Part shown: positions 6,835 to 62,249 of the stretch, piece by piece | Numbering within the stretch: the stretch's first letter is position 1 | How the letters are laid out: each line of letters begins with the position of its first letter | NCBI RefSeq assembly: GCF_040958095.1 | Contig: NC_091193.1 | Coordinates: 27,448,953-27,512,952, forward strand | Length of the DNA stretch: 64,000 nucleotides | Origin: Procambarus clarkii | Taxonomy: Eukaryota > Arthropoda > Malacostraca > Decapoda > Cambaridae | Reading direction: 5' to 3' | The notes under the pieces: model-generated | Told to the model about the DNA's origin: nothing | The model's input: only the letters and a program-made list of their open reading frames with translations | The model's database searches: none | Position numbers and translations under genes: made by a program

Positions 6835-7374
6835 TTCTGGGTGAGCCCCAGAGGCTCCCTGGAGCTTATCGGGCTAATGTATGTTATATTAGACCGGGAC
6901 ATTAGCTAAGGAGTTCAGACCTACCAGGGACCAGCACCAGAACCTGGCTCCTTCAGAGAGGTTTCAGGGAGCAATGGCCCTGGAAAACCCCCTTGTGGTT
7001 GGGGTTTTCATTATCTGCCATCGACCGGGGTTAGGCACCCAGAAAGGTAGGCATGACAAAACAAACCCCACATGGTAAAAAACTTAAAAAGAAAATGAAC
7101 AGAGAGGTAGAAACTCCCTACAATCTCAAGGAAACAAGCAAAGATCACACTTTACTGCCGCGCCGATTGTCCGCGCAGCCCTCCCCACCGCGAGAGAGGG
7201 TGGGAGGGGGGGGGGGGGGAGCCCGGACATCACCGCGCCGGCTTGCCTAGCATCAGTTCGGAAGCTAAGCTTCAACCAATGCGAAAAAAACGCCGACCGG
7301 TAGGAGGGAGGGTTGCCAGGAAGCCTCCGGGGCTCACCCAGAAAATGGCGTTTCATTACATTCAAACGCTGGTT
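6835..7374. repeat. DIRS-like 3' terminal region with flanking inverted arms
   Basis: Contains the terminal unit (landmark GGCACCCAGAAAGGTAGGC near 7034). It is bracketed by inverted arms: GAAACGCCATTTTCTGGGTG at about 6825-6845 and its complement CACCCAGAAAATGGCGTTTC at about 7334-7353. A G-run lies at about 7206-7219. DIRS elements are known for inverted terminal repeats with an internal complementary region, and this arrangement is compatible with that. Confidence 0.65.
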
Positions 7375-17619: not shown

Positions 17620-17951
17620 GTGGTGTGTTACGTTTGCTTGTTAACTTGTTTCCTTGGGATTGTAGGGAGTTCTACCTCTCTGTTCAGTTTTTGTTGTTAG
17701 TTTCTTACCATGTGGGGTTTGTTTTGTGATGCCTACCTTTCTGGGTGCCTAACCCCGGTCGATGGCAGATAAGGAAGACCCCCAATCACAGGGGGTTTTC
17801 CAGGGCCATTGCTCCCTGAAACCTCTCTGAAGGGGCCAGGTTTTGGCTCATGGTCCCTGGTAGGTCTGAACTCCATGGCCAATGTCCCGGTCTAATATAA
17901 CATACATTAGCCCAATAAGCTCCAGGGAACCGTAGGGGTTCCCCTCAGAAA
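17620..17951. repeat. DIRS-like inverted terminal repeat (copy 3, 5' end)
   Basis: Terminal unit with GCCTACCTTTCTGGGTGCC at about 17730 and ending AAGCTCCAGGGAACCGTAGG. It belongs to a subtype with TCTAATATAACATACATTAG near the end, shared with 12600-12650 and 19078-19098. The other subtype (2580, 32400, 35420, 62250) has ACACATGACTGATGCCAAAG there. Confidence 0.72.
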
Positions 17952-18784: not shown

Positions 18785-19137
18785 GGAGGGCTGTGCGGAC
18801 GATCGGCACAGCAGTAAAGTGTGATGTTTGCTTGTTTCCTTGGGATTGTAGGGAGTTTCTATCTCTCTGTTCGGTTTTTTGTTTTAGTTTTTTACCATGT
18901 GGGGTTTGTTTTGTTATGCCTACCTTTCTGGGTGCCTAACCCCCGGTCGATGGCAGATAAGGAAAACCCCAACCACAAGGGGGTTTTCCAGGGCCATTGC
19001 TCCCTGAAACCTCTCTGAAGGGGCCAGGTTCTGGCGCTGGTCCCTGGTAGGTCTGAACTCCTTAGCTAATGTCCTGGTCTAATAGAACATACATTAGCCC
19101 GATAAGCTCCAGGGAGCTGTAGGGGCTCCCCACAGAT
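18785..19137. repeat. Solo DIRS-like terminal repeat
   Basis: A complete terminal unit in the sense of 17620-17951 (with TTGTTATGCCTACCTTTCTG and TCCTTAGCTAATGTCCTGG) but with no DIRS coding region attached. It may be the product of recombination between terminal repeats, or a truncated insertion. Confidence 0.7.
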
Positions 19138-19149
19138 AAATGTGTAAAA

Positions 19150-20306: not shown

Positions 20307-20434
20307 TTAATGCAAAGCATTTCTGTCCTCTTCATATAGGAAATAAACTGGCACTGTGCCACTGGGTGTGTGGACGTCTTCCTGGCAGCGGATCAGCAGG
20401 CAGGCAGCACAGCCATAGGCCAAGCAGGGAATAC
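20307..20434 (-). CDS. C15orf61: C15orf61 homologue (DUF4528), coding exon 3 and stop
   Basis: 128 nt after acceptor TTCAACAG|GTATTC. The first two bases complete the Gly codon started in exon 2, followed by 41 codons and TAA (20309-20307). It encodes IPCLAYGCAACLLIRCQEDV then HTPSGTVPVYFLYEEDR. The human protein has a GIPTLLYG..L run and a TVYFLNKED-type C-terminus at the same place (family knowledge). The hydrophobic stretch may be a short membrane segment. The exon is too short to stand out as an open frame; it was found by joining phases. Confidence 0.93.
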
Positions 20435-20694
20435 CTGTTGAATAAAGGCACTGCTTTTCTTCCACAAGTATGCAAGGGATTCTACATATACTGTATATAA
20501 TTTTGAAACATATATATACATAGATAATTACTGTGCAAATGTTTATACTGCTCCAGTATCTATCTTGAAATTCTTATCCTTAGAGTTATTCATAGGTTTT
20601 TATTTACAGTACAGGTATCATCAGACTATATAAGATAAGTCTGTTGGATTTAAAATTATAAACATTGAAATTTTTAATACGCTATTGTAATTAC

Positions 20695-20827
20695 CTAAAT
20701 TTATTACTTTTATGATGCGGAATAAATTGTCATCTGAAGAGAGATCTTCATGTGGCCTCTTTGAGCAGTGGTACTTGATGTATGGCCAACATCCTGTCCT
20801 TAGTACATGATAATTGACTCCATCAAC
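20695..20827 (-). CDS. C15orf61: C15orf61 homologue (DUF4528), coding exon 2
   Basis: 133 nt between acceptor TTACCAG|GTTGAT and donor TTTAG|GTAATT; it starts in phase 0 and ends with one base of a Gly codon. It encodes [20 protein letters not shown] then [10 protein letters not shown]. The NYHVLRTGC-[FW]-P-[FY]-IKYHCSK block is the hallmark of the C15orf61/DUF4528 family. The function of the family is not established; human C15orf61 is a small protein with a predicted secreted or mitochondrial location. Confidence 0.95.
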
Positions 20828-21174
20828 CTGGTAAGAAAATATATGCATTATGTAAGTACACGTAAATATAAACTGTATGGCCATAATTTCAACATTCAGA
20901 CCTGTGGACACCATTGAATTCAATACGTAGGGACAATATCTTTTAATGGGAGGTAATAGAATTTTCCAGTACAACCAGGAGAGTAGATGAAGATTGGCGT
21001 CGGAGTATTGTCTTGAAGACTATAATCTAAAATCAAAAGATTGAGAGGCTTCCATGGCAAAAACAGTACACAGCCTCAAATTTCTGAATCTCACCCAGAA
21101 AATATTCACGCATCAGCATATTAAGTAGGCCATGGGAGAGCAACAACGGGTTGTCCCATCATTTGTCCCGGGGG

Positions 21175-21375
21175 GCCTCGTAGCCTGGTGGATAGCGCGC
21201 AGGACTCTTAATTCTGTGGCGCGGGTTCGATTCCCGCACGAGGCAGAAACAAATGGGCAAAGTTTCTTTCACCCAGAATGCCCCAATTACCTAGCAGTAA
21301 ATAGGTACCTGGGAGTTAGTCAGCTGTCACGGGCTGCTTCCTGGGGGTGGAGGCCTGGTCGAGGCACCACCCGGC
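21175..21375 (+). mobile_element. tRNA-derived SINE with well-preserved Lys(CTT)-like head
   Basis: The head (21175-21244) has a perfect 7-bp acceptor stem (GCCTCGT with ACGAGGC), an anticodon arm CAGGA-CTCTTAA-TTCTG giving CTT, and a perfect T arm GCGGG-TTCGATT-CCCGC. It runs directly into the SINE body (CAGAAACAAATGGGCAAAG, then TTTCTTTCACCC, TAAATAGGTACCTGGGAGTT and CAGCTGTCACGGGCTGCTTC) shared with the copies at 1, 1742 and 38165, whose heads differ. It lies sense-opposite to the host gene in intron 1. It could still be transcribed by Pol III. Confidence 0.85.
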
Positions 21376-21589
21376 CCAACGAAAAGAAACTGCAGGGGGC
21401 AGGAGAGGAAGAATGGAAGCCACAACCACCTGCATACAGGGCAACCCAAAAGCTGGAACTGCCAAACAAGAAGATGAAAACTCAGGACCAGAACCGAACA
21501 CAGAGGCGGTGCAAAAGCAGGAAACTGAGCATGGACAAAGTCCAACCTAGCATTAGTAGAGCCAAGAAGCACATACTAAAACACACAAC

Positions 21590-22473
21590 AAATAATCAGC
21601 AAATTGAAAGAAAGTGTATGCAACACTTGAGTAACAGTTTTAGGTCTCGAGGGGTTAGTAAAAGATTTATGCAAGGACAAGAATTAATTGGAAACAAATT
21701 GCAAAGCCATGGAAGAGGAAAATAAACTTTTAAAAATAGCTATGGAAGAAGTTAAAGCAAATTTAAACATAAATAATTACGATAGGTTAGGTAAGGAAAT
21801 TCAACAGGAAAAACAGCTTTTGTTAGTACAGATGGAGGAGGTTACACAGGGAATAGAACAGTGCAAGAAAGATATGCAACTCACCTATGCACAAGTGCCA
21901 GGGAGAAGGAAAAAAGAGAAGAAGCAGTAAAGGACGCCAAACACTACAGCAACCAGGATAAAACAAACATTAGACTGGAAGTGAGAAAAGAACTAACATC
22001 TAACCCGTAGTTGCAGCACAACACAGTTGATCGAAGTCCCTGATAATTTTTGGTTGCAAAGAAAAGGAGATAACATCTAGGTCAGAAAGAGCTATACAAG
22101 AAGAGAAAGTAGTAGATAAAATTGTTGGCCTCGTGGAAGGTCTACCATAGAGAATGTCTGCGACTACAGGAGGATTGGAAAGGACGTAAAAGGGAAAGAT
22201 CGACCTTTGAGGATCACCCTAAACAGTGCCAAAGAGATGGAAGAAGTACTAACGAATGCTAGAAAATTACAAAGTGATGAGGAAGGGAAAGTATGGTCGT
22301 TAAAACGAGATCTTTCAAAGCAAGACAGAGAGAAGCTAAAACTGAACCTCGTCGAGCCAAAACATCTAAATGAGAGCAAGAATGAAGAAGGAATCAATTC
22401 ATTTTTCTACAAAGTGATAGCGGTAGGCAGGCCAGTAAAATGGTACAAAAAGACAAACCAACAAAATCACTAG
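21590..22473 (+). pseudogene. LINE family B ORF1-like region (broken)
   Basis: Lys/Glu-rich coiled-coil pieces: EEVKANLNINNYDRLGKEIQ near 21750, then after stops VWSLKRDLSKQDREKLKLNL (about 22290-22350) and NSFFYKVIAVGRPVKWYKK just before a stop at 22473. This resembles ORF1 proteins of CR1-type LINEs (coiled coil plus a nucleic-acid-binding C-terminus). ORF2 starts about 37 nt later. Several stops interrupt it. Confidence 0.6.
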
Positions 22474-22509
22474 AGAAAGGGGTAGTGAAGAATAAGGGAA
22501 AGGGGGAAC

Positions 22510-23097
22510 ATGTTCCTGAAAATTGCATACACCAACATTGATGGAGTGAGATCAAAGATACTGGAGTTAAGTGATGTAATAGAGCTGCAGACACCAGATA
22601 TTGTTGCACTCATGGAGATAAAATGTGATGATGATATTTTAAATGAGGTCATATTCCCAAGAGTCTACTCAGTCTGGAGACAGGACAGAAAAATTAGGAA
22701 AGGCGGTGGCATTGCTGTGCTGGTGAAAGAACACCTAAAGGTAAATGAAATAATGATTGCCAATCCACAAGAAGTTGACATAATAGCACTAGAGATCTGC
22801 AGTCAGGATGATAAACTAAAGATCATAAATGTATATAGTCCATCGTCATGCAACACATGGCCAAAGGAGGAGCTGGATAATAAACGAGAGGGTCTTAAAA
22901 CAATAATGAGAGAGATTATAGCGAGACCTAATATAGATAGATCACGACTGTTGGTATGCGGCAACTTCAACTTGAAATCCATAGACTGGGAGACGTATGA
23001 AGCTAGAACAGAGGATTTTTGGACTTGTAGATTCGTAAACCTCATCCTGGAAACATTCATGTTTCAACATGTTGAACATGTAAAATACATGACAACA
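22510..23097 (+). pseudogene. LINE family B endonuclease domain (truncated ORF2)
   Basis: Starts MFLKIAYTNIDGVRSK and carries the apurinic-type endonuclease signatures: N in YTNIDG, E in ALMEIKCDDD and the RKGGGIAVLV strand. The usual GDFN box reads CGNFNLKS, an Asp to Asn change at a metal-binding position. The frame is cut at a TTAA (23098-23101) by the element at 23102-27919, and no RT follows. CR1/Jockey superfamily by domain type. Confidence 0.75.
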
Positions 23098-24031
23098 TTA
23101 ACCCTTTAACTGCGCAACGCGCCTGCAGGCCCAGGCTTCGGGTGCGCAGCGCGCCTCTGGGTGTTTTTATTTTTCACGTTCCATTCAAAACTCCCGCGGC
23201 TACATGGGGCTCACATCAGCTTCCTCAGGGCTCTTGTAAACAGATGCCATCCTAAAAAAAAAATCATGGTCCACATTGCCGGGTGTCAGAGCCTCAGTAG
23301 TGAGTGAGCAACCAAGGCTGGCGCTCGCAGCATGAGCGCACAGCACTGCTGTTCAGCGTGTGACCACAGCATCGCCTAATTTTGTCAAAATATATATATA
23401 ATCTGTTTTATTTAGCCATGATAGTATTATAGAAGAGCCCGAGTGTGATAATGACTGGGTACAATGTTCAAATATCAGTGATTCAATGCTGTTCACGATG
23501 TTCACAGTGCTAACCTCAGCACCACAGCATTATTTCGTCCATCTATGAATCTTCAAACGACTTTTTAGGTTCCTTTTCAAAATAAACTTGTGGTCAATTA
23601 TTCATTTACAGGTATTAGTGACCAGGATTGTGGTTATAATGAGCGTTGTGTGTAGGAAGGAGGAATTTTGGTGAGGGAGGGAGGAAGGGAGAGAATTGAG
23701 GTAGCCTCAATGTGTGGCAGTAACTCTTGTTTTGCTCACTGAACTAGCTTCGTGGTTCGCTATGGGGAACACACACGTACATGGGTATATACAGTCTGTG
23801 TGAATAGTGTAATAACAGCACCAGGAGTATGTTGTAAGGAGCTATTTTGGTGAGAGGTGACGTCGTAATCGTGGCGTCGTCTGCTCTCTGCTGTGATTTG
23901 TCATGCAGTGTATGGTGGCCACTGTACTGTTTGGACACAATACCAGCTTACTTGCATAGTTCTGGTAAATAAAACATGTAGAGAGGTATATATAACATGT
24001 GTAAATCGTGTAATAAATACAATAACAGTAT

Positions 24032-24400
24032 GGTGGAAGGAGCAATGTTGGCGAGTAAGATGTTGGAGTGAGGGAGGGCTGGCTGGGTGTGGCTGCTCAC
24101 ACTCGCGATGTTCTAAGTGTGTTGATGGTGAATGTATATAGTGTGTGACAGTGTATAGTGTGTACATATGTTGTAAATCTACATAAATGAACATGAAACA
24201 TTGGTGTGAATAACTGTATGATTTGGAGGAGCAATGTTGGCGAGTAAGATGTTGGCGGAGTGAGGGAGGGCTGGCTGGGTGTGGCTGCTCACACTCGCGG
24301 TGTTCTGAATGTATTGATGGTGAATGTATATAGTGTGTGACAGTGTATAGTCTGTAAATAGATTGTATATATACATAAATTAGCATGATACATGGTAAAT
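24032..24400. repeat. Two-copy tandem repeat, period about 190 bp
   Basis: Units start at about 24036 and 24225 with GGAGCAATGTTGGCGAGTAA and share GGCTGGCTGGGTGTGGCTGC and TGATGGTGAATGTATATAGT. A more diverged third unit may lie at 23820-24030. It is internal to the TTAA-bounded element. Confidence 0.8.
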
Positions 24401-24439
24401 ATGTGCAACATATGTGTACACAAGTGTCATGCACAAGTG

Positions 24440-27400
24440 TCTTGCCGAAAAAGTCTCCCATTCAAACTATCACTAATAGAGTAACCTCATTCATCTTTGC
24501 CAACATACAAGGACTGAAAACAAGAACAAACAACAAAGTACAGTTCATAAATGGCCTCCTCACGGAGTCAAATGCAGTATTTGGAGCTTTCACAGAAACC
24601 CATGCAGGGGAATTGTTGGACAGTGAGATCTGGATTCCAGGATATAACCTATACAGGTGTGATAGGAAAATTAGGTCACATGGAGGAGTGGGTCTGTATA
24701 TTAGGGAAGACCTTGTATGCTCGGAGCTCCTAAACGTTACAAATGAGGTGGTAGAGGTACTGGGATTAAAAATAGAGAAAATAAATTTAGTGATTATACT
24801 AATATACAAACCGCCAGATGCAACGGCTGAGGAATTCACAGAACAGATAAGCAAAATTGAGAATAGCCTTGATAATTTGGAGAACCCGATACCTGATATT
24901 ATCTTCCTAGGTGACTTCAACTTGCCTAGTCTCAGGTGGAAAATAGCAAACAATAATATTATACCAGGAAATCTATCAGGACCTAACCAACCACAGATTA
25001 GAGAACTACTTAGATTCTGTGACAAATTTTCACTCAATCAGCAGATATCGGAGCCAACGAGAAATTAAAATATTCTAGATCTGGTCTTTACGAACAATGA
25101 AGACATTATCAGAGACATTACGATATCAGATACCACATACTCAGATCACAAACTCATTGAAGTGCAAACGACCATCAATACTCAGAATAGACCTAAAACG
25201 TTGATAAAGCGAGAGGGGCTATTCAGTAAATTCAATTTTAATAATAAAAGGATAGACTGGGAGATAATAAACAGGGAACTTACAAACATTCCATGGGGAA
25301 CTGTTCTAAATAATACAAGTCCTACAGAAGGAATAGAAAAACTGACTTCAGAAGCGTATCAAGTCTGTCTGAAACATGTTCCTTTGAGGAAAGCCAGAAA
25401 GAGATCTAACGTAGAAAGAGAACGCAGACGACACTATAAACGCAGGAAAAAAATAACAGAACTGCATATGCAGACACGAATTTCCCGTCAAAGAAGGAAT
25501 AATTTAAATAGGGAGATTGAAGAAATCGAGTGGAAATTGAAACACTCATATGAAACTGAAGAAAGGCAGTTAGAACAGAAAGCGATTCGGGAAATAAAGA
25601 AAAATCCAAAATATTTCTTCTCATATGCGAAATCAAAAGCAAAAACCACTGCCAGTATTGGACCTATTCGTACAAGTGAAGGTTCATACACGGAGGATGA
25701 CAAAGAAATTAGTGAAATCCTAAAAAAGCAGTATGAGGACATGTTTAGCACTCCAATAAACAACATGAAGGTGGAAGATCCAGACAATTTCTTTATGCGG
25801 GATATTCAAACCCCTGTAAATATAACTGATATAAACACGAGCGCACTAAATTTTGAAAAAGAAATTGAAAACATGCCTATGCACTCGGCCCCAGGTCCAG
25901 ACTCATGGAATTCAATATTTATAAAGAAATGCAAAGTGCCGGTAGCACAGGCACTCAGTATAGTGTGGAGGAAGAGCTTGGACACGGGGGAGATACCAGA
26001 TGCACTTAAAGTAGCAGACATAGCCCCTCTACACAAGGGAGGGAGCAAAGCATTGGCAAAAAATTATAGACCAGTTGCACTAACATCGCACATCATAAAA
26101 GTATTTGAGAGAGTGATTAGGAGTCAGGTCACCAATTTCATGGAGACCAATGACCTTCACAACCCAGGTCAACATGGATTTCGAGCGGGAAGATCGTGCC
26201 TCTCACAGCTACTTGAGCATTACGACAAAGTCACTGAGGCATTAGAAGAGAAACGGAATGCTGATGTGATATACACGGACTTCGCAAAGGCTTTCGATAA
26301 ATGTGACCATGGCGTGATAGCACACAAAATGAGGTCAATGGGAATAACCGGTAAAGTAGGACGCTGGATACTCAGTTTTCTGTCAAACAGGACTCAGCGA
26401 GTAACTGTCAACCATATAAAATCTAGTCCAAGTGCAGTGAAAAGCTCTGTACCTCAGGGTACAGTCCTTGCACCGCTGCTTTTCCTTATTCTCATATCAG
26501 ATATAGACAAAAATACAAGTCACAGCTTCGTATCATCCTTTGCAGATGACACAAAAATCAGTATGAAAATTACCTCGGCTGAGGACATTGAAAAACTTCA
26601 AGCTGATATTAATAAAGTTTTCGACTGGGCATCAGAAAATAACATGATGTTTAACAGTGATAAATTCCAGGTACTCAGGTACGGTAAAAATGAGGACCTT
26701 AAACATAATACAGAGTACAAAACACAATCAAATGTACCCATAGTAGGAAAATAGCATGTAAAGGATTTGGGAATAATAATGTCTGACGACCTAACGTTTA
26801 AGGAGCATAACCAAGCATATATTGCGACAGCCAGAAAAATGATAGGATGGATTACGAGAACTTTCAAATCCAGGGATCCCATCACAATGGTTGTACTCTT
26901 CAAGTCACTTGTGTTGTCCCGTCTTGAGTACTGCTCAGTACTCACTTCCCCCTTCAGAGCAGGAGAGATTGCTGAAATAGAGGGAATACAGAGAACATAT
27001 ACGGCACGCATAGACGCAATAAAGCACCTAAATTATTGGGATCGTCTCAAAGCCCTCCAAATGTACTCACTAGAAAGAAGACGAGAGAGATATCAAATAA
27101 TATACACCTGGAAGATACTGGAGGGCCAAGTACCAAATCTACACAGTAAAATAACAACGTACTGGAGTGAACGACATGGAAGAAAATGTAGAATAGAACC
27201 AGTGAAGAGCAGAGGTGCCATAGGCACAATCAGAGAACACTGTATAAACATCAGAGGTCCGCGGTTGTTCAACGTCCTCCCAGCGAGCATAAGAAATATT
27301 GCCGGAACAACCGTGGACATTTTCAAGAGGAAACTAGATTTATTCCTCCAAGGAGTGCCGGACCAACCGGGCTGTGGTGGGTATGTGGGCCTGCGGGCCG

Positions 27401-27515
27401 CTCCAAGCAACAGCCTAGTGGACCAAACTCTCACAAGTCGAGCCTGGCCTCGGGCCGGGCTTGGGGAGTAGAAGAACTCCCAGAACCCCATCAACCAGGT
27501 ATCAACTAGGTATGC
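24440..27515 (+). pseudogene. LINE family A ORF2 (endonuclease + RT), two in-frame stops
   Basis: One reading frame from about 24462 to 27471, broken only by TAA (25066-25068) and TAG (26752-26754). The endonuclease has FANIQGLK, FTETHA, FLGDFNLPS and SDHKLI (25141-25155), so all metal-site motifs remain. The RT has YRPVALTSHI, HGFRAGRSC, YTDFAKAFDKCDH, SVPQGTVLAPLLF and the catalytic FADD (26539-26550), followed by a C-terminal zone ending GLGE. The 3' end carries short GTATCAACTAGGTA-like repeats. CR1/Jockey superfamily, 5'-truncated. At the second stop other copies read Gln (TAG from CAG), which points to a nonsense mutation. Confidence 0.9.
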
Positions 27516-27923
27516 ACGTAACACAGTGTCCTCAGACAGTATGGATCTTTTACTGCCATAATATTGTGTACGTGTTCATTATACATAGGATTATCACGTA
27601 AAAACAAATAAAATGTATTTGGAACTGTGCGCAAAAAATGAACAAAAATATATTCGCGGCAACTCGCGCGCCCCGCCTCGAGTGCCCCACCGGCCCCGGG
27701 AGCTTACTGCACGGGCGAACAGGGAATGATGACGTCACACGCCAACTTACGGACCCCATAGCAGCCAAAGTAAGTACAAGTTCAAAATTTTTTTGACATA
27801 CCCATACTGGGGGAAGGGTTTTTGACACTTTAAAAAAACAAAAGAATTTTTTCAAGAAAATTTATTTCCTGCGCACTGGGGGGGGGGGTGTCATATTTAT
27901 AGGCCGCGCAGTTAAAGGGTTAA

Positions 27924-28641
27924 AATACACATGTAAACATGTGTATAACATTTGGTATCTCGCTCGTCTCCTTTCTAATGAGTACATTTGAAGAGCTTTG
28001 AGACGATCCCAATAATTTAGGTGCTTTATCTCGTCTATGCGTGCCGTATATGTTCTCTGTATTCCCTCTATTTCAGCAATCTCTCCTGCTCTGAAGGGGG
28101 AAGTGAGTACTGAGCAGTACTCAAGATGGGTCAACACAAGTGATTTGAAGAGTACAACCATTGTGATGGGATCTCTGGACTTGAAGGTTCTCGTAATCCA
28201 TCCTATCATTTTTCTGGCCGACGCAATACTTGCCTGGTTATGCTCCCTAAACATTAGGTCGTCGGACACCATTATTCCCAAACACTTGACATGCTGTTTT
28301 CCTACTATGGGCAGATTCAATTATGTTTTGCACCTTGTATTATGTTTCAGATCCTCATTTTTGCCATATCTGAGTACCTGGAATTTATCATCGTTAAACA
28401 TCATGTTATTTTGTGCTGCCCAATCGAAAAGTTTGTTAATGTCTGTTTGTAGTTTTTCAATGTCTTCAGCAGAGGTAATTTTCATGCTGATTTTTGTATC
28501 ATCTGGAAAGGATGACACGAAGCTGTGACTTGTATTTTTGTCTATATCAGATATGAGAATAAGGAACAGCAGTGGTGCAAGGACTGTACCTTGAGGTACA
28601 GAGCTTTTAACTGCGCTCGGACTAGATTTTACTTGATTGAC
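27924..28641 (-). pseudogene. LINE family A RT fragment
   Basis: The minus strand matches LINE A from the RT catalytic region to mid C-terminus. The catalytic box reads SSFPDDTKIS, an Ala to Pro change in FADD. A frameshift separates this from VGKQHVKCLGIMVSDDL. It ends abruptly at the TTAA of the neighbouring piggyBac-type element (27920-27923). Confidence 0.85.
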
Positions 28642-28942
28642 CCGTATGCAGAGAATAACTAGGCGTCTTCCTCATATCAGAAATCAGAACACCCCCCCCT
28701 CCCTCCAGTATGTACGGGGCCCCGGACAGGAAGATAAGAGGAGTGAGAGGTGAAGTACCCGAGAGAAAATGGACGTGGAACATCACATGTGTGTACACCG
28801 TCCATGATAAAACAAACTCCCACGGTGCATGCGCAGGACGAATGGGGTCTGAACCGCACAACCCGCCTGGCGGGGAGGGCGCCAACAAGGAGTATTTGAG
28901 GAATATTAGCAGTGCTGAGACAGAGCACGGAGAGAAGATATA

Positions 28943-30495
28943 CTGTAACCCCGCGATTATCCGGGATTCGAACATCCGAAAAACGCCCTTATACGGCCAA
29001 AATCGTGAACGGATAAAGTTATTACAATATCCGGCCAAAATAGCCACAGGGACCGGATTAAAGCAGGTTTTCTGCAGAAATTACACTATCCGGTCAGTCC
29101 CCCCAGATAATCGTGCCTTTGTCCGTATATGAAAACATGAGGCAGGCCATACGGTATTAATCCCGTCTGCCCGAGACTCGAGGCGCATGGTGTAGGTGGG
29201 GGTGGGGTGGGTGGGTGGTGTTGGGAGGGTGGGAGGGGTGCGTCAGGAGGGACTACCTGGGTACAGGAATTACCATTAATTTTAGAACAATTAATCATAG
29301 CCAAAAACAAATAAAATAACTACTAGTAATTATGTAATAACAAATAAATAAGTTTCCTAAAAGCATTGTGCACAGGCTGAAGTTTCCTTAAAAAATATTG
29401 TGAATTTTTTTCCTCCTGGCGGCCTACATAACGCGTTATGGCTGCCCCAAGTGGACCTGTCCAACACTGGTCAACCCATGTGCGTCCGTCCCTCGTGTTA
29501 TACACAGTGCTGCGCCATTAGTGAAATATTTTTTTAAATAACTTTTTTATTTTCATAGTAACTTTGAACATTTTTGGCCAAGACTATGTCTGGTAGCAGC
29601 ATCAATCGTTCTGGAGGTGTTAAGAGGAAGAAAGTTGTCCTAACAATTAAAGACAAGTCACAGTTATACGCCTCAACCAGTGCGGCCTCACAGTGTTGCG
29701 CCATTAGTGAAATATTTTTTTAAATAACTTTCTTAATTTTCATAGTAATTTTGAACATTTTTGGCCAAGAATATGTCTGGTAGCAGCATCAATCGTTCTG
29801 GAAGTGTTAAGAGGAAGAAGATTGTCCTAGCAATTAAAGACAAGTTACGTGTTGTTCAAACAGTGAGGCGTCACAGGCAGCCAAGCGCCTTCAACAAGTG
29901 AGGCGCCACAGGCAAGCCAAGCTCCTTCAACAAGTGAAGCATTATAGGCAAGCCAAGCGCTTTCAACAAGTGAGGCGCCACAGGCAAGCCAAGTGCTTTC
30001 AACAAGTGAGGCGCAAGCAAGCACCTTTAACAAGTGAGGCGTCACAGGCAAGCCAAGCGCCTTCAACAAGTGAGGGCATGCAAGCGCTTCAACAAGTGAG
30101 GTGCAAGCAAGCACCTTCAACAAGTGAGGCCTCACAGGCAACCCAAATGCCCTCAACCAGTGAGGCTTCAGCAGCTGGCAGTCAAAACTAACTTAGCTTA
30201 ATGAACTGTACAGTAATTTTAAGTGTTAATTTTAGTGTTGTGTTAGTATAGGTTACGTAAATTGTTAAGAATTTTTAACTTCAAGATGTGTGGCATCAAT
30301 CAAGAAGACGAACACCAACAAGGTAAGTTGAGGTTTCTAGTTGAATATTTAATAATTGTATGTGGCAAGGCAATTCAAATTATGTTGTTTGTAGTATAAA
30401 AATAGTTGGAAATGGTCACTTTTGGACTCGTAGGTGAAAAAGTACCATTATCCGAAAAATGTGATAATCCGGCTGGGGGTCCTTCCCATATAGTC
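28943..30495 (+). mobile_element. pogo/jerky-like DNA transposon remnant with internal deletion
   Basis: The left end has CCGCGATTATCCGGGATTCG near 28951 and further ATCCGG repeats; the right end has ATTATCCGAAAAATGTGATA then ATCCGGCTGGG (30447-30480), as in pogo-superfamily elements with ATTATCCG-rich termini. Near 29773 lies MSGSSINRSGSVKRKK then IVLAIKDKLRVVQT, the start of a CENP-B-type DNA-binding domain. An earlier, more diverged duplicate lies near 29587. At 29850-30190 is a repeat encoding TSEA-type motifs and a C-terminus ending SEASAAGSQN. The DDE catalytic domain is missing. Confidence 0.65.
29850..30175. repeat. Minisatellite, period about 36 bp, in the jerky-like element
   Basis: About eight copies built on TTCAACAAGTGAGGCG, CACAGGCAAGCCAAGCGC, with shorter variants (GTGAGGCGCAAGCAAGCACC). 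In the last copies the frame reads PSTSEASQA, so the array may have grown from a short Ser/Thr-rich coding repeat of the transposase C-terminus. Confidence 0.85.
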
Positions 30496-30499
30496 TGGA

Positions 30500-33045
30500 T
30501 GATCGAGTGGAGACAGTACGTACAAAAGAACGAGCCAATACTGAAAACCAAGACGAGGCACGGAAGAGGACCAATGAGTCCTAGAGAGGACTGGAGGTAA
30601 GCCTCCCTGGAAGACAACAGACTTTTCAATAATACAGGAAGCATAGAAGACCTTCAGAACCTTCGAGATCCTACAGAAGCAAGCACAAAATCACGAAGGC
30701 TCATAAAGGCACTGTCGCACCCCGAGACCACAGGTCATGCAGAACCCTGATACGAGGGGAACATGACCCTGGCATGACAGAGAAGTCCTGTCCCAAAGAA
30801 GAAGGGTGAGAAAACGGAGAAAAGTACCCACCGATAGGACGGAACCAACGGACCCGAAGGGATAAAGAACCGAACCCGGTGAGGGGCCGACGCCCAACAA
30901 CATGTATGCAAAGGGGGGGAAAGGAAAATCCCACTCCCCGTAACCGCAAGCCCCGCTCAGAGGGTATAAAAACCCTGGCAGGGTCCAACGGGGCCCGAGG
31001 CCCTGCAAGTCAGACCCTCCGCAGCCCCAGAAACCTCCATGGCAGACTGGTGCTGAGCTGTCCCCTTAATGCCCCAGCCTCACAAGAAAAAGCCGGGGCA
31101 GCTGGAAAAATACTAAGGAAGGGAGCCCACTGGCAGACTCATACAACACGGCTGGAGGAACAGGCTCGAATGACCCAGACGCTACCCTGAAGGGGAATTC
31201 CCCGAGACCGCCCAAGTCTCAAGACCATCGAATACTTGCCCCGACCCCGAATCCACAAACGGAGAGGATCCGGATGCAGGGAGGAAAGGGGGGGGGGGAC
31301 CAGACTAGACTACAACAGGGGAAAGACAAGGGGGTGAGGATGGAAACAAAACCGAAGTGACCAACACCCCCAAGCCCTGGCACAACAATCATAACAGGGC
31401 AGCCTCGGGGCTTCCGGGGAGCAAAGAACCAAGCGCATTGCAACCACCTGAACCCAACGGGCAACACCCGTGCTGCCTGCACCCGCATAATCAGCATAAG
31501 ACTGGGCAACTGAGTCACAAACAAGCAACAAAACTCGCAGGATTCCGGGTCGAAGGTGCCACCAACCCAACAGGCAGCAGACGGAGGAAAAAACAGTGAG
31601 TCACCCTGAGACAAAGGGACAGAGCAACCCTCGAACCTACACAAAGCAAGGGGGGAATCAGGGGTCACATCCATCGGACCCACACGCCCCCATGGGGATT
31701 CCCAGAGTCCTGAGACGGAACTCACGCTCTGGTAAGCCTAGGAAGGGTACTGCTAACCGGCGCCCAAGTCTACCAGACAACTTTCTAAGAACTGAACGCC
31801 CAGGGACGTGTACACTCACGGGGACCAAGCAGGAGGTACCACCAGAAGAGACAGGAGTACTCAATACAAAGGGGACAATAACCAAGGCAGACCCCCCTAC
31901 CAGGCAGGCAAACAAAAAGAAAAACAAAACCCCGCAAGAGAACAGCATACCCAGGCAGAACAGAGCCGGCTGCTATGATTGGTGAAAACAAGCTGCGCAG
32001 TACCCTGCGCCCCTTACCAATGCAAACTGCCTCCTACCTTAAGGCAAACAAGGGAGACAGAACACCTTAGCACACAAAGAGAAGCTGAAAACCAAGCAGT
32101 AAACGGCCTAGCAGAGGCAGAACCTAAGGAACTTGTGGAAGGTGGCAACAAGCCCCAAGGGCAGTACTTACTGGGCACCTAGGGAAGGGAGCCTTAGGCT
32201 CATGCCGCTCAAGTACTGAAGAATCACTCCTGGCTCACGCACCACCTAGAAGACAGTCACCACACACAAGGCACAGTGCAGAAACAACCACTGGAGCCAG
32301 AGCACACAACTTCTGCCTATAGCATCAGCCTCAGAACTGAGGTGTGGATGGCCGGCGTGGGGGTCTGGGACTTCCCCTCCCCCCTTCCGGGGAGGGGGGG
32401 GGGGAGCTGCGCAGACGGCGACGTGTGACGTCATACTGTTTGCTCGATTTTGTTTGGAGAGTTCTATCCACTTGTTCGGCTTAATACGGGTTTGTTTTGG
32501 GACACCTACCTTTCTGGGTGCCTAACCCGGTCGATGGTAGTGTAGCGAGTAGATTATCCCAATAATATACTCGCTCCAAATATAGTGTTAATATTCCTGT
32601 CAACCTTTGGAGATGAATGAGGTGAGGTGTTGCCCGAGCAATATAAGCAGCAAGAATAGCAAACATTAACTAGTCTACTTTCAAGTGTGGTCTAGAGCAG
32701 ACACTTGCGAGATACTGTACCGACGCTCAGTGCGCTCAACTCACACCAAAGTATCACCGGTGTACTTCTGTATATTCGACCAAATATATATATAGTATCT
32801 TAGTGTCTGTGTTTATTTGGCACCATACTTTACGTAACAATAGAACCGTTACAGTAGACATAGAATGCTTCCAACCACACAGCGGTTTCTATAGGCCATT
32901 GCTCCTCGTGCCTCTGTGAGGGGGCCAGGTTCTGGCTCGTGGTCCCCGGTAGGCCCACAGAACTCCATACACATGACTGATGCCAAAGTCTGACATTAGC
33001 ATATCAGCCTGGATAGCTCCAGGGAGCTGACAGGGCTCCCCCAGA
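30500..33045 (-). mobile_element. DIRS-like retroelement, copy 4 (5' part only)
   Basis: On the minus strand: 5' terminal repeat (32400-33045, split by the LTR-like element at 32541-32853) and gag-like region down to about 30500. The RT, RNase H and recombinase are absent. The gag-like part matches copy 1 (for example CAACCTAGCGCATTGCA-like and GGGCAGCCTCGGGGC sequences). It is sense to the host gene. Confidence 0.75.
32541..32853 (+). mobile_element. Solo LTR-like element (second copy)
   Basis: 313 bp, TGTAGCGAGTAG to ACCGTTACA, flanked by GTAG at 32537-32540 and 32854-32857. The uninterrupted DIRS terminal repeat at 35563-35580 reads GATGGCAGACATAG, so the insertion site is directly visible. 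It is the same family as 4991-5327 in opposite sense, lacking about 24 bp in the GTTGCCCG-containing segment that is partly duplicated in the other copy. Confidence 0.8.
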
Positions 33046-34035
33046 AAAAATATTTTTTGGACATTGGTGAAAGTAACAGATATTATCATTGGGTAATGTA
33101 TATTGTTATATATCTATGATATATAACAAAATAGAGCATAATAACATAATTACTCATTATTATTGGTGTTATTATGTATTACTCAGCAATGTTACAAAGG
33201 CACCTGCTGCATATCTACTTTGTGGACACTTCTAACTACTATTCTTCTTTGTGCATCGGACAGGTGCTTGCACCTCTTTATTACTGCATTATCCCTCAGT
33301 TCCAGTTAATAAGAACTGTTCTCCTTATCAACAAAACATTTTTCTATTTTAAAAAATTTGTCTAAAATACATTTCTGAAAATATTGGGATGAAACTTTCA
33401 TGACGCTGAAGGGGGCATTAGATTTCGATTTCCCCAAAAATGAATTAAATGAAAACTGGTTCGATTTCAATCAAACTTTTTTAACAAGTTGTACATGAAA
33501 AGAGTTTCATCTGGCCCAAGTCTCAGCATCGGAGCATAAATAGGAAGGGAGAAAAAAATATTGAAGTAGGTGTCAAAATTATTCCAAAATGGTCAAAAAC
33601 GATTATCAAACACAAGTGTCAACTGAAATAATATCTATGACTCTCAGCTATCACAATAGCATATATTAAAAAAATATTATAATTAGTTTTATTAGAAAAA
33701 AATTTAAGTTAAAGTTTTTTTTTTCAAAATATTTTTTTTTTTATTGGACGATTTGCATGCAACGTATACACCTGACTGCACAGAAGTCTATCTGTAAGGG
33801 TGCCAATTTGGAGAAAACTGGTTGATGTCAACCTCAGCCACAGATGGCAGCACCTTAGACTATTATTTTCATATTTATTTTCAAATAACATAAACGTTCA
33901 AATAACTTTTTCATTTTTTATTCAATTTACATGAAACTTACACCTTGTATGTAAAGTGTATGTCTCTAAAATCGGTTGTTAGCTTTTTTTCAAGTTCATT
34001 TATTGATTTTATAATAGCAATAAACATGACATATT
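33046..34035. other. AT-rich stretch without recognised features
   Basis: No exon, transposon domain or tandem array was recognised. A long T run with A-rich flanks lies at about 33715-33745. It could be host intron or an unclassified non-autonomous element. Confidence 0.5.
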
Positions 34036-35762
34036 TGGGAAGGAAGGGGGCCACTGGTCAGACCCAGATGCTTCAGCAGGAGGAACCGGCTCGAATTCCT
34101 CCTTCGCCACCCTGGAAGGGGTATCCCCCCCGAGAATACCAGAGTCTCCAAACCAACTATGTGTACATACTGACCTGACTCCGAAACCCTCAGATGCTTC
34201 GGAACTGGAAGCAGGGGGAAAAGACAAGAATGAACCAGAGCTGGAGAAGGACTAGAGGACGCGGACTGAACCAAAGTCGATGCAACTATCACCCGCAAGT
34301 CCAGATCCCTATAACCAAAACGGGGCAGCCTCGGGGCTTCCGTGTCAGCAACCAATCTAGCGCATTGCAGCAACCTAAAACGAGCATGCAACGCCTGCGC
34401 TGTCTACATCCGAACAGTGTCATCAGTGGACTGGGTGAACTGAGTCACAAACAAGCAACAAAACTCGCAGGACTTTGGGTTGAAGATGTCACCATGCTCG
34501 TTTGCTCGTTTTCATTTGGGGAGTTCTGTCCACTAGTTCGGCTTTCAGTAGCAATTTCTTAACCAGAACAGGGATTTGTTTTGGGGCGCTTACCTTTCTG
34601 ACAGCATGACAGAGACAGAAACAGTGAAGATCACCCGGAGACAAGGGGACCGAGCAACCCTCAAACTCGCACAAAGTGAGAGAGGACCCAGGGGTCACTT
34701 CCATCAGACCCATGCATCCCCGTGTGGTTTCCCAGGGCTCTTAGACAGAACTCACACTAAGAGAAGCCCAGGTTGAGTACTGCTGCTAACTGGTGCTTAA
34801 AGTTACCAACAAAACTGCTAAAGCCGTCCCCCCCCGTCCAGGACATGTACACTCACAGGGGCCCAGATGGGGAGACCACCAAGATACAATCGGGTGAGAT
34901 CAAAACCAAGGGGCAGAACCCCCAACCAGGCAAGAAAACAAAAATAAAAGGAAACCCCCGCAAGAGGACAATGTACCCAGGGGGAACAGAGCTGGCCACT
35001 ATGAGAGATGACAACTAAATGCACAGTACCCTGCGCCCCAACCAGTGATGACTACTATGCCCTACCCAGAGGCAAACAGGGCTGAATGAAATGCCCCAGC
35101 TGACTCCAAGGGAGGCCAATCAGCAGGCAGCAAAAGACCTTGCGGAGGTATCCCCCAAGGTGACTTGTGGAAGATAGGACCAAGCTCCAAAGGGCTTACT
35201 GGGCACCTAGGGAAGGTGACTATAGGCACATGCAACCTGAGTACTTGTGAATGGCTCGTGCACCACCAAGAACAGCACTCACACCACATGGCACATAACT
35301 GGAAATAGAGTCGCACGACCTTGCCAGCCTCACATCAGTCACAGAACTGGGCTGTGGATAGCCATTGTGGGGGTCTGGGGCTTCCCCCTCACAGCAAGGG
35401 GGAGCTGAGCAGACAGCGGCACCTTGACATAATGACGTCACGCTCATTTACTTGTTTTCATTTGGTGAATTCTGTCCACTAGTTTGGCCTTCAGTAGCAA
35501 TTTCTTAACCAAAATACGGGTTTGTTTTGGGGCGCCTACCTTTCTGGGTGCCTGACCTGGTCGATGGCAGACATAGAATGCTTCCAACCACACGGGGGTT
35601 TCTATAGACCATTGCTCCTCGTGCCTCTGTGAAGGGGCCAGGATCTGACTCGTGGTACCCGGTAGGCCTAATAACTCCATTCGCTTTGACTGATGCCAGA
35701 GTCTAATTCATTCATATCAGCCCGGATAGCTCCGGGAAGCCGAAGGGGCTCCCCCACAGAAA
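34036..35762 (-). mobile_element. DIRS-like retroelement, copy 5 (5' part only)
   Basis: On the minus strand: terminal repeat (35420-35762) and gag-like region to about 34036. A second, partial terminal-repeat segment (34492-34610, with TTTGCTCGTTTTCATTTGGG and TTACCTTTCTGACAGC) is embedded in the gag-like part, indicating an internal rearrangement. The terminal repeat ends only about 50 bp from the splice donor of C15orf61 exon 1. Confidence 0.75.
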
Positions 35763-35812
35763 AATAAACAAAATGTTTAGATAAAAATCAATGTGAATTG
35801 GTATTGTCTTAC

Positions 35813-35989
35813 CTGCCAATTAAAGTGTGAATATCCTCTCTGATCACTGGTTACATCTTTGTACTTAACAAAATATGATGTCCAGTGTGGTAACTGCCTT
35901 TGTCTTAGATGAGTGGTGAGCACGAGGGATGCTGCAGGCTTTACCTTGCGTGCACACTTCCACACACTCAGGCTCTGGCTCACATGCAT
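35813..35989 (-). CDS. C15orf61: C15orf61 homologue (DUF4528), coding exon 1 (start)
   Basis: ATG at 35989-35987, 59 codons, donor TTGGCAG|GTAAGA in phase 0. It starts [20 protein letters not shown] and continues [20 protein letters not shown] and GYSHFNWQ. The family has VLT.HL.QR.LPHWTSF and G.SHFNW at the same positions (family knowledge), so the join [13 protein letters not shown] is convincing. The basic, Trp/Cys-containing N-terminus could be a targeting sequence (inference). Total length 145 residues against about 157 in human. The start was chosen as the only in-frame ATG before the conserved block. Confidence 0.93.
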
Positions 35990-36175: not shown

Positions 36176-37725
36176 CAAACATGCCTCACCCTCAGGACTT
36201 GCCTCACCTTCAGGGGTGAGACACCCCAACATCCAGGACACACCCTCAGGTCACACGCCTCACCCTCAGGACACACACACCTCACCCTCAGGACACACAC
36301 ACCTCACCCTCAGGACACACACGTCTCACCCTCAGGACACACGCCTCACCCCTCAGGACACACACCTCACCCTCAGGACACACACACCTCACCCTCAGGA
36401 CACATGCCTCACCCTCAGGACACATGCCTCACCCTCAGGACACATGCCTCACCCTCAGGACACACGCCTCACCCTCAGGACACACGCCTCACCCTCAGGA
36501 CACACGCCTCACCCTCAAGACACACGCCTCACCCTCAGGACACACGCCTCACCCTCAGGATACACGCCTCACCCTCAGGACACATGCCTCACCCTCAAGA
36601 CACACACCTCACCCTCCGGACACACCTCACCCTCAAGACACACACCTCACCCTCAGGACACATGCCTCACCCTCAAGACACACGCCTCACCCTCAAGACA
36701 CACACCTCACCCTCAAGATACACGCCTCACCCTCAAGACACACACCTCACCCTCAAGACACACGCCTCACCCTCAAGACACACACCTCACCCTCAAGACA
36801 CACGCCTCACCCTCAAGACACACACCTCACCCTCAAGACACACACCTCACCCTCAAGACACACGCCTCACCCTCAAGACACACGCCTCACCCTCAAGACA
36901 CACGCCTCACCCTCAAGACACATGCCTCACCCTCAGGACACACGCTTCACCCTCAGGACACACAGGGCTCATGCCTCACCCTCAGGACACTCAGGGCTCA
37001 CACAGCAGGCCTCAGGACACTCAGGGCTCATGCCTCACCCTCAGGACACTCAGGGCTCACACAGCAGGCCTCAGGACACTCAGGGCTCATGCCTCACCCT
37101 CAGGACACTCAGGGCTCACACAGCAGGCCTCACGACACTCAGGGCTCACGCAGCAGGCCTCACGACACTCGGGGTTCACACAGCAGGCCTCAGGACACTC
37201 AGGGCTCACACAGCAGGCCTCACGACACTCAGGGCTCACACAGCAGGCCTCACGACACTCGGGGTTCACACAGCAGGCCTCAGGACACTCAGGGCTCACA
37301 CAGCAGGCCTCACGACACTCAGGGCTCACACAGCAGGCCTCACGACACTCGGGGTTCACACAGCAGGCCTCACGACACTCAGGGCTCACACAGCAGGCCT
37401 CACGACACTCGGGGTTCACACAGCAGGCCTCAGGACACTCAGGGCTCACACAGCAGGCCTCACGACTCAGGGCTCACACAGCAGGCCTCATGACACTCAG
37501 GGCTCACACAGCAGGCCTCAGGACACTCAGGGCTCATGCCTCACCCTCAGGACACTCAGGGCTCATGCCTCACCCTCAGGACATTCAGGGCTCACACAGC
37601 AGGCCTCATGACACTCAGGGCTCACGCCTCACCCTCAGGACACTCAGGGCTCACACAGCAGGCCTCATGACACTCAGGGCTCACGCCTCACCCTCAGGAC
37701 ACTCAGGGCTCACGCAGCAGGCCGC
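36176..37725. repeat. Two-domain minisatellite (20-bp then 30-bp units)
   Basis: From about 36240 to 36960 roughly 37 copies of CACCCTCAGGACACACGCCT with small variants (GGACACATG, AAGACACAC). From about 36960 to 37725 a 30-bp unit predominates: CTCACACAGCAGGCCT joined to CAGGACACTCAGGG. Both share CCTCAGGACAC, so the second array probably derives from the first. Long open frames through it (up to 482 codons) exist because the units lack stop codons; they are not genes. Confidence 0.95.
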
Positions 37726-37820: not shown

Positions 37821-38383
37821 CTCCCTAGCATTACGTAAATAAAATAGAAGTGTGGTAAGTATACTCACAATAATGTTGGTGCTAAATGTGGAACATGATC
37901 AAACACATTTATACTCTGAAAGTGTCATTTTATAACGAAATTCGAGGCTGGTGTGTGGGAGGCCGGCCCCGGGGGCTGTGTTGTGGGGCGACTTGTCCAC
38001 CACTGTGGCCACCTGGGGGAGTGTTGCTCACAACACTTGTTACAACACCTGCTCCTTTACAACACTTGTCACCACCCAGCACCGCACCTTGTGTGTATGT
38101 GGCTTCAAGTTATTATAGAGAGTGCGCAAACCACAATATTGGAGTAAGTGTTAGGTAGCAGTGTGAGAGGGCTACGACTTAACACGGCTGAGTGGACAGC
38201 GCTCGGGTTAGTAGTCCTGAACGTCTGGGTTCGATCTCGGGCGGAGGCAGAAACAAATAGGCAGAGTTTCTTTCACCCAGATGCTCCTGTTAACCTAGCA
38301 GTAAATAGGTACCTGGGAGTTAGACAGCTGCAACAGTCTGCTTCCTAGAGGTGTGTGTGTGTGTGTGAAAATCAGGATTAAGG

Positions 38384-38769
38384 GGTCCGTCTATTTACCA
38401 CAAGCTACCACAAGCTTCATATAGCTTCCTGGCAATACGTTAGTAATGAATAAATATGATATGTTAGGTTAGGCTGACCTAACCTGACCTGACCTAACCT
38501 AACCTAACCTAACCTAACCTAACCTAACTTAACCAAACTAAACCTAACCTAACCAACTAAACCTAACCTAACCTAACCAACGCTTTGATCGTCGACTTGA
38601 TTTGGCGTCACCAGCTCTTTTTGTCTAATTTCTTTATAAAAAGATACTTTTTCAGATTAAAATTATGTTTTTTCGTGTTGTGCATTCAGTACCAACATTA
38701 TAACGAGAAAATATATCATGTTTATTCATTACTAATGTATTGCCAGGAAGCTTTGTGAAGACGGACCGA
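38384..38769. mobile_element. hAT-like foldback MITE carrying TTAGG repeats
   Basis: 386 bp with ends GGTCCGTCT and AGACGGACC(GA) and a longer inverted block GCTTCCTGGCAATAC then TTAGTAATGAATAAA near both ends. It is flanked by the 8-bp direct repeat GATTAAGG (38376-38383 and 38770-38777), which duplicates SINE sequence. An 8-bp duplication fits the hAT superfamily. The centre (38462-38581) is (CCTAA)n, and no coding region is present. Confidence 0.75.
38462..38581. repeat. Interstitial telomere-type repeat (TTAGG/CCTAA)n
   Basis: GTTAGGTTAGG, then a switch to CCTAA repeats (about 16 copies with variants such as CCAACTAAA). TTAGG is the usual arthropod telomere unit. The strand switch makes an imperfect inverted repeat. 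It lies inside the foldback element, not at a chromosome end. Confidence 0.85.
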
Positions 38770-42936: not shown

Positions 42937-43004
42937 ATATAAAAATACACTCGCTTCTTTCTTACAATCTGCTTCCACCCAGTGCATTATTCACATTCAT
43001 TATG

Positions 43005-44360
43005 CACTCTTAATTATAGACCTGTATCATTGACAAGTGTAATAGTCAAAATATTGGAAAAAATAATTAAAACTAAATGGGTAGAACACCTGGAGAGAAA
43101 TGATATAATATCAGACAGACAGTATGGTTTTCGATCTGGAAGATCCTGTGTATCGAATTTACTCAGTTTCTATGATCGAGCAACAGAGATATTACAGGAA
43201 AGAGATGGTTGGGTTGACTGCATCTATCTGGACCTAAAAAAGGCTTTCGACAGAGTTCCACATAAGAGGTTGTTCTGGAAACTGGAAAATATTGGAGGAG
43301 TGACAGGTACGCTTCTAACATGGATGAAAAATTTTCTGACTGATAGAAAAATGAGGGCTGTGATCAGAGGCAATGTATCGGACTGGAAAAATGTCACAAG
43401 TGGAGTACCACAGGGTTCAGTTCTTGCACCAGTGATGTTTATTGTCTACATAAATGATCTACCAGTTGGTATACAGAATTATATGAACATGTTTGCTGAT
43501 GATGCTAAGATAATAGGAAGGATAAGAAACTTAGATGATTGTCATGCCCTTCAAGAAGACCTGGACAAAATAAGTACATGGAGCGCCACTTGGCAAATGG
43601 AATTTAATGTTAATAAATGCCATGTTATGGAATGTGGAATAGGAGAACATAGACCCCACACAACCTATATATTATGTGAGAAATCTTTAAAGAATTCTGA
43701 TAAAGAAAGAGATCTAGGGGTGGTTCTAGATAGAAAACTATCACCTGAAGACCACATAAAGAATATTGTGCAAGGAGCCTATGCCACGCTTTCTAACTTC
43801 AGAATTGCTTTTAAATACATGGATGGCGATATACTAAAGAAATTGTTCGCGACTTTTGTTAGGCCAAAGCTAGAATATGCAGCAGTTGTGTGGTGCCCAT
43901 ATCTTAAGAAGCACATCAACAAATTGGAAAAGGTGCAAAGACATGCTACTAAGTGGCTCCCAGAACTGAAGGGCAAGAGCTACGAGGAGAGGTTAGAGGC
44001 ATTAAATATGCCAAAACTAGAAGACAGAAGAAAAAGAGGTGATATGATCACTACATACAAAATAATAACAGGAATTGATAAAATCGATAGGGAAGATTTC
44101 TTGAGACCTGGAATGTTAAGAACAAGAGGTCATAGATATAAACTAGCTAAACACAGATGCCGAAGAAATATAAGAAAATTCACTTTCGCAAACAGAGTGG
44201 TAGACGGTTGGAACAAGTTAGGGGAGAAGGTGGTGGAGGCCAAGACCGTCAGTAGTTTCAAAGCGTTATATGACAAAGAGTGCTGGGAAGACGGGACACC
44301 ACGAGCGTAGCTCTCATCCTGTAACTACACTTAGGTAATTACACTTAGGTAATTACATGC
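43005..44360 (+). CDS. LINE family B reverse transcriptase, 5'-truncated but open
   Basis: Open from before 43005 to the stop at 44308-44310 with no disruption. Motifs in order: [70 protein letters not shown] (catalytic FADD at 43492-43503), then [31 protein letters not shown] and a C-terminus [20 protein letters not shown]. The 3' tail is two or more copies of ACACTTAGGTAATT. CR1-type non-LTR retrotransposon. The 5' end is cut against TA repeats. The intact frame suggests a young copy. It cannot move by itself without the missing endonuclease. Confidence 0.9.
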
Positions 44361-49539: not shown

Positions 49540-49712
49540 GACAATGTCATACCACGGAGGAAAAATGAAACAGGAATTTCCTTAAGTACTTTCGTATATT
49601 AAATACATCTTCAGAAGGTCCTGGACCTTCGGACCTTCTGAAGATGTATTTAATATACGAAAGTACTTAAGGAAATTCCTGTTTCATTTTTCCTCCGTGG
49701 TCTGACATTGTC
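49540..49712. repeat. 173-bp palindrome with 82-bp arms
   Basis: Arms 49540-49621 and 49631-49712, loop of 9 nt, one mismatch in 82 bp (T at 49550 against the complement of C at 49702). It starts GACAATGTCAT; the right arm contains CTGAAGATGTATTTAATATA then CGAAAGTAC. It follows a TA run and precedes another. Confidence 0.93.
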
Positions 49713-49745
49713 ACATTCTTAATCACGTGTTTATTTTCGTGATAT

Positions 49746-50978
<1,233 letters not shown>

Positions 50979-62240: not shown

Positions 62241-62249
62241 CTTTTGGGA

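What the first reader, a model, noticed from the sequence alone, without database searches (positions are those of the whole stretch)
20307..35989. Complete C15orf61/DUF4528 gene split by a 15-kb repeat-filled intron
Three short minus-strand exons (177, 133 and 128 nt) join with exact phases (0, then 1) to give 145 residues with all family hallmarks ([31 protein letters not shown]). None would be called from open frames alone. Intron 1 contains at least nine insertions from six element classes. The function of the family is unknown.
Basis: partly seen in the sequence, partly recalled or inferred. Interest (0 to 1): 0.75.

Follow-up and report, generated by a model that had tools for sequence, protein, structure and literature searches.

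The report
Ordinary crayfish C15orf61 mitochondrial gene
This is the normal crayfish version of a small, very conserved animal gene for a probable mitochondrial protein, cut into three exons with one long repeat-filled intron, which is not surprising in such a large genome.

Summary
Three minus-strand exons (35989-35813, 20827-20695, 20434-20307) join in phases 0 and 1 to a 145-aa protein that matches Pfam DUF4528 with E = 3.5e-64. An identical protein heads a cluster read from 5 public contigs of at most 1,673 nt, far shorter than the 14,985-nt intron 1, so spliced transcripts most likely exist. The nearest named relative, Procambarus clarkii C15orf61-like, differs at one residue: the window is from a crayfish and the gene is already known. 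Best reading of function: a mitochondrial accessory partner of ATP synthase. It rests on published human complexome data (PMC10434966), a presequence-like N-terminus in 34 of 34 aligned proteins and one hydrophobic segment. Human knock-outs had no significant OXPHOS defect. One small new inference: most cut-short vertebrate isoforms break at the codon, and fit the phase, of crayfish intron 2, so that intron is probably ancient.

The parts
35813..35989 (-). Exon 1 coding part (177 nt, codons 1-59): presequence-like N-terminus, PHWTS and SHFNW motifs; donor GTAAGA
   Evidence: its open frame scores 68.1 bits on DUF4528; gap-free alignment from the Met to Panulirus P0003; nearest in-frame stop is the 12th codon upstream of the Met
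20828..35812 (-). Intron 1, 14,985 nt, phase 0, GT..AG, about 67% covered by the repeats annotated here
20695..20827 (-). Exon 2 (133 nt): [16 protein letters not shown] and the start of the hydrophobic segment
   Evidence: its open frame scores 83.7 bits
20435..20694 (-). Intron 2, 260 nt, phase 1 (splits the Gly codon of NLG|IP); position and phase inferred to be shared with mammals
20307..20434 (-). Exon 3 (128 nt including stop TAA): rest of the hydrophobic segment, C-terminal VYFL..E
   Evidence: its open frame scores 43.0 bits
34040..35766 (.). Second copy of the GC-rich repeat family in intron 1; the matched part ends 46 nt from the exon 1 donor site
30838..33052 (.). First copy of the GC-rich repeat family in intron 1, split at 32540/32856 by a 0.3-kb insert that is 90% identical to 4991-5328
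24379..27512 (+). Non-LTR retrotransposon in intron 1 (endonuclease frame 24379-25068, reverse transcriptase frame 25069-26754); 25852-27512 is 88% identical to 59069-57411
27938..28641 (-). Inverted partial copy of the same retrotransposon (90%)
22120..23109 (+). Retrotransposon endonuclease piece (Exo_endo_phos in 22489-23106, E 5.6e-9; the open frame 22120-22473 before it had no Pfam match and is included by position only)
21175..21364 (+). tRNA-derived SINE; similar copies (84-86%) at 1799-1975, 64-238 and 38227-38353
24021..24393 (+). Tandem duplication of a 192-nt unit
29503..30170 (+). Tandem arrays: 187-nt unit x 1.8, then 36-nt unit x 9.5

Best explanation
It is a functional orthologue of animal C15orf61 (Pfam DUF4528) in a crayfish of or near Procambarus. 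It is transcribed from the minus strand and spliced from three coding exons. The 15-kb first intron is passively filled with mobile elements and is simply removed. The 145-aa product most likely enters mitochondria through its positively charged N-terminus. It probably attaches to the inner membrane by one hydrophobic segment (residues about 97-118) beside a small beta-sheet domain, and acts as an accessory partner of F1Fo-ATP synthase rather than as an essential subunit. Shown here: the gene model, the family, the conservation and the presequence-like charge. Shown by others for the human protein: mitochondrial evidence and co-migration with ATP synthase. Inferred: that the crayfish protein does the same, its inner-membrane attachment, and its accessory role. 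The gene model itself is near certain; the confidence below is for the whole statement.
For: Exact joined frame; DUF4528 E = 3.5e-64; an identical 145-aa protein (P0001) heading a 90% cluster of 2 sequences on 5 contigs, the longest 1,673 nt, and P. clarkii XP_045581946.1 with one residue different. In 221 fetched proteins, P0001 included, Y65, L68, R69, G71, P74 and K77 are the same in 221 of 221, and P34, T37, F56 and H79 in 220 of 220 with a letter there. N-terminal extension before P18 in 34 aligned proteins: 160 K/R against 7 D/E in 672 residues, 34 of 34 net positive, 27 of 34 with no acidic residue; the rest of these proteins has 457 K/R against 374 D/E in 4,354. Best 19-residue hydropathy window of at least 1.6 in 26 of 34. 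AlphaFold2 best model mean pLDDT 88.3, pTM 0.80. Passages read in PMC10434966: C15orf61 co-migrates with ATP synthase (their score FrC 6/8) across replicates and studies, was seen to do so earlier by Morgenstern et al., and is listed as mitochondrial in MitoCarta 3.0. Passages read in PMC7046634: its abundance correlates negatively with respiratory conductance in mouse heart mitochondria. A passage read in PMC8185549 names it among the hits of an imaging screen in OPA1-mutant fibroblasts.
Against: HEK293T knock-outs showed no significant change in the activity of any of the five OXPHOS complexes, with complex I somewhat lower, so co-migration may not mean a working partnership. The same passage notes an annotation as a secreted protein. 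8 of 34 aligned proteins have a hydrophobic window below 1.6, so a true membrane span is not certain. Of the five structure models one had a mean pLDDT of only 50.0, the others 81.2 to 88.3. Nothing was measured in crayfish. Copy number in the genome could not be tested.
Confidence: 0.6

Rival explanations
1. The same gene, but the product is a mitochondrial protein that only happens to run at the size of ATP synthase on native gels and works elsewhere (for example on complex I or in membrane upkeep).
For: Knock-out leaves OXPHOS activities without significant change, complex I tending lower; named among the hits of a mitochondrial-shape screen; complexome profiling has limited resolution (general knowledge).
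Against: In the CompaCt analysis it was the only cluster member that is not an ATP synthase subunit with a score as high as 6/8, consistent across replicates and studies.
Confidence: 0.3
2. The locus is a non-functional or retired copy (pseudogene) and the working gene lies elsewhere.
For: The genome could not be searched for a second copy.
Against: The frame is intact, introns are kept (so it is not a processed copy), splice sites are canonical and there is one substitution against P. clarkii over 145 residues. An identical protein is known from contigs too short for the intron.
Confidence: 0.02
3. The three pieces are chance matches and not one gene.
For: None found.
Against: Each exon's open frame alone matches DUF4528 above the cutoff, in order, on one strand and in compatible phases.
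Confidence: 0.001

Closest known systems
Procambarus clarkii uncharacterized protein C15orf61-like (XP_045581946.1, P0002)
   Same: 145 aa, 144 of 145 residues identical
   Different: One residue: V in the window, I in P. clarkii at position 133; its exon structure was not seen
Vertebrate C15orf61 (for example Lepisosteus P0115, Moschus P0142, mouse isoform 2 P0200)
   Same: 53% (P0115) and 55% (P0142) identity; an intron at NLG|IP inferred at the same codon and phase in mammals
   Different: Longer N-terminus; crayfish intron 1 is perhaps absent in mouse (inferred only from P0200 being listed from a metagenome collection too)
Pfam PF15031 DUF4528
   Same: Profile positions 1-125 of 126 matched, 214.8 bits
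   Different: No difference was noted

Membership tests
C15orf61 / DUF4528 (PF15031) | Full-length profile match above the curated cutoff | tested here: met
   214.8 bits against 27, profile positions 1-125 of 126
C15orf61 / DUF4528 (PF15031) | Conserved core Y-x-x-L-R-T-G-x-x-P-x-x-K-Y-H (pattern drawn up here from the alignment) | tested here: met
   Present in the window protein; Y65, L68, R69, G71, P74, K77 in 221 of 221 fetched proteins, H79 in 220 of 220, T70 in 219 of 221, Y78 in 219 of 220
Mitochondrial (presequence-bearing) protein | Basic N-terminal extension almost without acidic residues | tested here: met
   4 K/R and 0 D/E in 17 residues here; 34 of 34 aligned proteins net positive
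Mitochondrial (presequence-bearing) protein | Found in mitochondria | not testable with these tools
   Published for human and mouse only (passages read)
ATP synthase subunit or accessory | Physical association with the complex | not testable with these tools
   Human co-migration published; not tested in crayfish
ATP synthase subunit or accessory | Similarity to a solved ATP synthase subunit | tested here: inconclusive
   Sequence and profile searches of solved chains gave nothing below E 0.25; the fold comparison gave only weak rows
Functional spliced gene | Transcript joining the exons | tested here: met
   Indirect: identical 145-aa protein in a cluster whose longest contig is 1,673 nt; the contig DNA and any reads were not seen

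The most novel reading that the evidence does not exclude
The nearly unchanging polar residues on neighbouring strands (N57 219 of 220, N64 220 of 221, R69 and K77 221 of 221, H79 220 of 220; H55 207 of 220 and H66 209 of 221) mark a binding or catalytic site. C15orf61 would then be a ligand-binding or enzymatic regulator that sits on ATP synthase rather than a structural add-on. That they lie on neighbouring strands is read from the strand ends of the model; coordinates were not measured.
Probability: 0.1. Interest if true: 0.6.

Novelty: already known. Interest (0 to 1): 0.15.

Why it matters
It confirms a gene model that was read by eye and adds a clean decapod member of a family whose job is still open. 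The residue counts and the inferred ancient intron are small aids for whoever takes up C15orf61. It changes no view of genomes or of mitochondria.

Tried and rejected

Papers. 'DUF4528': 0 papers. 'C15orf61': 17 papers listed, of which I read passages in three. The mouse name 2300009A05Rik (recalled): 3 papers, listing only. Listings only, which gave nothing more on C15orf61. The Morgenstern et al. proteome paper is not held and is cited only through PMC10434966. Passages on intron length were read in two decapod genome papers from the listing.

Considered and dropped: a disulfide or metal site at C72/C80. Of 220 proteins with letters at both positions, 206 have both Cys, 4 have lost only C80, 3 only C72 and 7 both. 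Losses tend to go together, but single losses exist in several similar sequences, so no pairing is claimed. No tree was built. The proteins were the 120 listed of 341 hits for the window protein plus the 109 hits for P0036, of which 101 were new, 221 in all; the other hits were not seen.

Limits of the intron-position inference. Of 53 matched pieces that end before profile position 135, 40 end at 104 exactly, 6 more at 103 or 105, and 7 elsewhere (100 to 111). 33 of 53 continue with Glu-Trp after the Gly. The named sources are mammals and two birds; the two birds break at or near LKA, a few residues earlier, which does not fit. Others continue differently, as alternative exons would. Related mammals make few independent events, and no genomic DNA of them was seen.

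Full report
What is there. On the minus strand, 35989-35813, 20827-20695 and 20434-20307 join to 438 nt: 145 codons from ATG, then TAA. Introns begin GT and end AG; intron 1 falls between codons (phase 0) and intron 2 splits the Gly codon of NLG|IP after its first base (phase 1). The nearest in-frame stop is the 12th codon upstream of the Met and no other in-frame Met lies between. The protein matches DUF4528 with E = 3.5e-64 over profile positions 1-125 of 126.

Is it expressed as joined? The protein search lists an identical 145-aa protein (P0001) that stands for a 90% cluster of 2 sequences on 5 contigs, the longest 1,673 nt. Intron 1 alone is 14,985 nt, so these contigs cannot be this genomic stretch; they are most simply transcripts. 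I did not see their DNA. The nearest named protein is Procambarus clarkii XP_045581946.1, different only at residue 133. Panulirus ornatus is 79% identical and of equal length. Together with a TTAGG array at 38477-38578 (arthropod telomere repeat, recalled), this puts the window in a crayfish of or near Procambarus.

The exons are not invisible to open-frame analysis: the three open frames alone score 68.1, 83.7 and 43.0 bits on DUF4528, cutoff 27. In intron 1, I annotate 11 segments (10 elements or arrays) that cover 9,986 of 14,985 nt: a tRNA-type SINE, an endonuclease piece, an endonuclease-reverse transcriptase element and its inverted partial copy, tandem arrays, two copies of a GC-rich repeat family and a nested 0.3-kb repeat. 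The last two families have no name from any call, so 'six classes' is unproven. One repeat ends 46 nt from the exon 1 donor. A 15-kb intron is not striking: the Cherax quadricarinatus genome paper (passages read, PMC10106460) gives 78.69% repeats, an average gene length of 40,182.55 bp and, in the five homology-based sets whose rows I saw, average introns of 8.8 to 31.5 kb. The spiny lobster paper gives a shorter average intron, 6,300.84 bp (passages read, PMC11193758), so 15 kb is long but of the same order.

A probably ancient second intron. Among 221 fetched proteins, 53 matched pieces stop short of profile position 135; 40 of 53 stop at 104, the Gly of NLG, and 46 of 53 within one position of it. 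Five proteins resume the profile at 98-103 after an inserted stretch (P0157, P0158, P0161, P0162, P0167). After the Gly, 33 of 53 continue with Glu-Trp. Read back with the rule that introns begin with GT, this is G|GT GAG TGG, a phase 1 donor GTGAGT that was not spliced; phases 0 and 2 do not fit. Crayfish intron 2 has the same codon position and phase. So the intron probably predates the split of arthropods and vertebrates. This is inference from peptides, whose named sources are mammals and two birds, and the birds break a few residues earlier. Intron 1 may be younger, because the mouse isoform 2 protein (P0200), which spans its position, is also listed from a metagenome collection, where DNA is usually read without splicing. 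That is weak.

How it most likely works. The stretch before P18 has 160 Lys/Arg and 7 Asp/Glu in 672 residues over 34 aligned proteins, against 457 and 374 in 4,354 residues in the rest. This is the charge pattern of a mitochondrial presequence. A hydrophobic segment lies at about 97-118; its best window is below 1.6 in 8 of 34. The best model (mean pLDDT 88.3; one of five models only 50.0) shows a helix, beta-strands, two short helices over the hydrophobic segment and two final strands. Published work, of which I read passages: human C15orf61 co-migrates with ATP synthase (FrC 6/8) and is in MitoCarta 3.0, but HEK293T knock-outs had no significant change in OXPHOS activities, and an annotation as a secreted protein also exists (PMC10434966). 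In mouse heart mitochondria its level correlates negatively with respiratory conductance (PMC7046634). It was also named among the hits of an imaging screen in OPA1 fibroblasts (PMC8185549). I therefore commit to a mitochondrial accessory partner of ATP synthase, at about 0.6, with the gene model itself near certain.

The core. In the 221 proteins Y65, L68, R69, G71, P74 and K77 do not change, and H79 is kept in 220 of 220. The two conserved cysteines C72 and C80 look dispensable: 14 of 220 proteins have lost one or both.

Verdict. A correct and well-read ordinary gene; interest 0.15.

Noticed in passing
window 36241-37723: Two adjoining minisatellites (20-nt unit x 35.8, then 30-nt unit x 26.1) begin about 250 nt upstream of the start codon, in the likely promoter or 5' UTR region; their length may vary between animals and affect expression.
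   Followed up: no
window 6840-7095 and 17688-17944: Inverted repeats about 90% alike, some 10.6 kb apart, flank a GC-rich, A-rich stretch; related ends recur at 12508-12668, 18902-19141, 32488-33048, 35518-35766 and 62249-62507. Possibly a DIRS-like element family (recalled, not tested).
   Followed up: partly
window 42943-44307 and 57455-58822: Further long reverse-transcriptase open frames (RVT_1 E 2e-33 and 4.6e-24).
   Followed up: partly
window 49706-50662: Open frame with CENP-B_N and HTH_Tnp_Tc5 domains, probably the N-terminal part of a pogo/Tigger-type transposase (type recalled).
   Followed up: partly
window 38477-38578: Array of the arthropod telomere-type repeat TTAGG/CCTAA (5-nt unit x 20.6) inside the window.
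   Followed up: no
proteins P0170, P0189, P0190, P0217 (unnamed sources): A divergent group of DUF4528 proteins that has Ala in place of both C72 and C80 and a changed PHWTS motif.
   Followed up: partly
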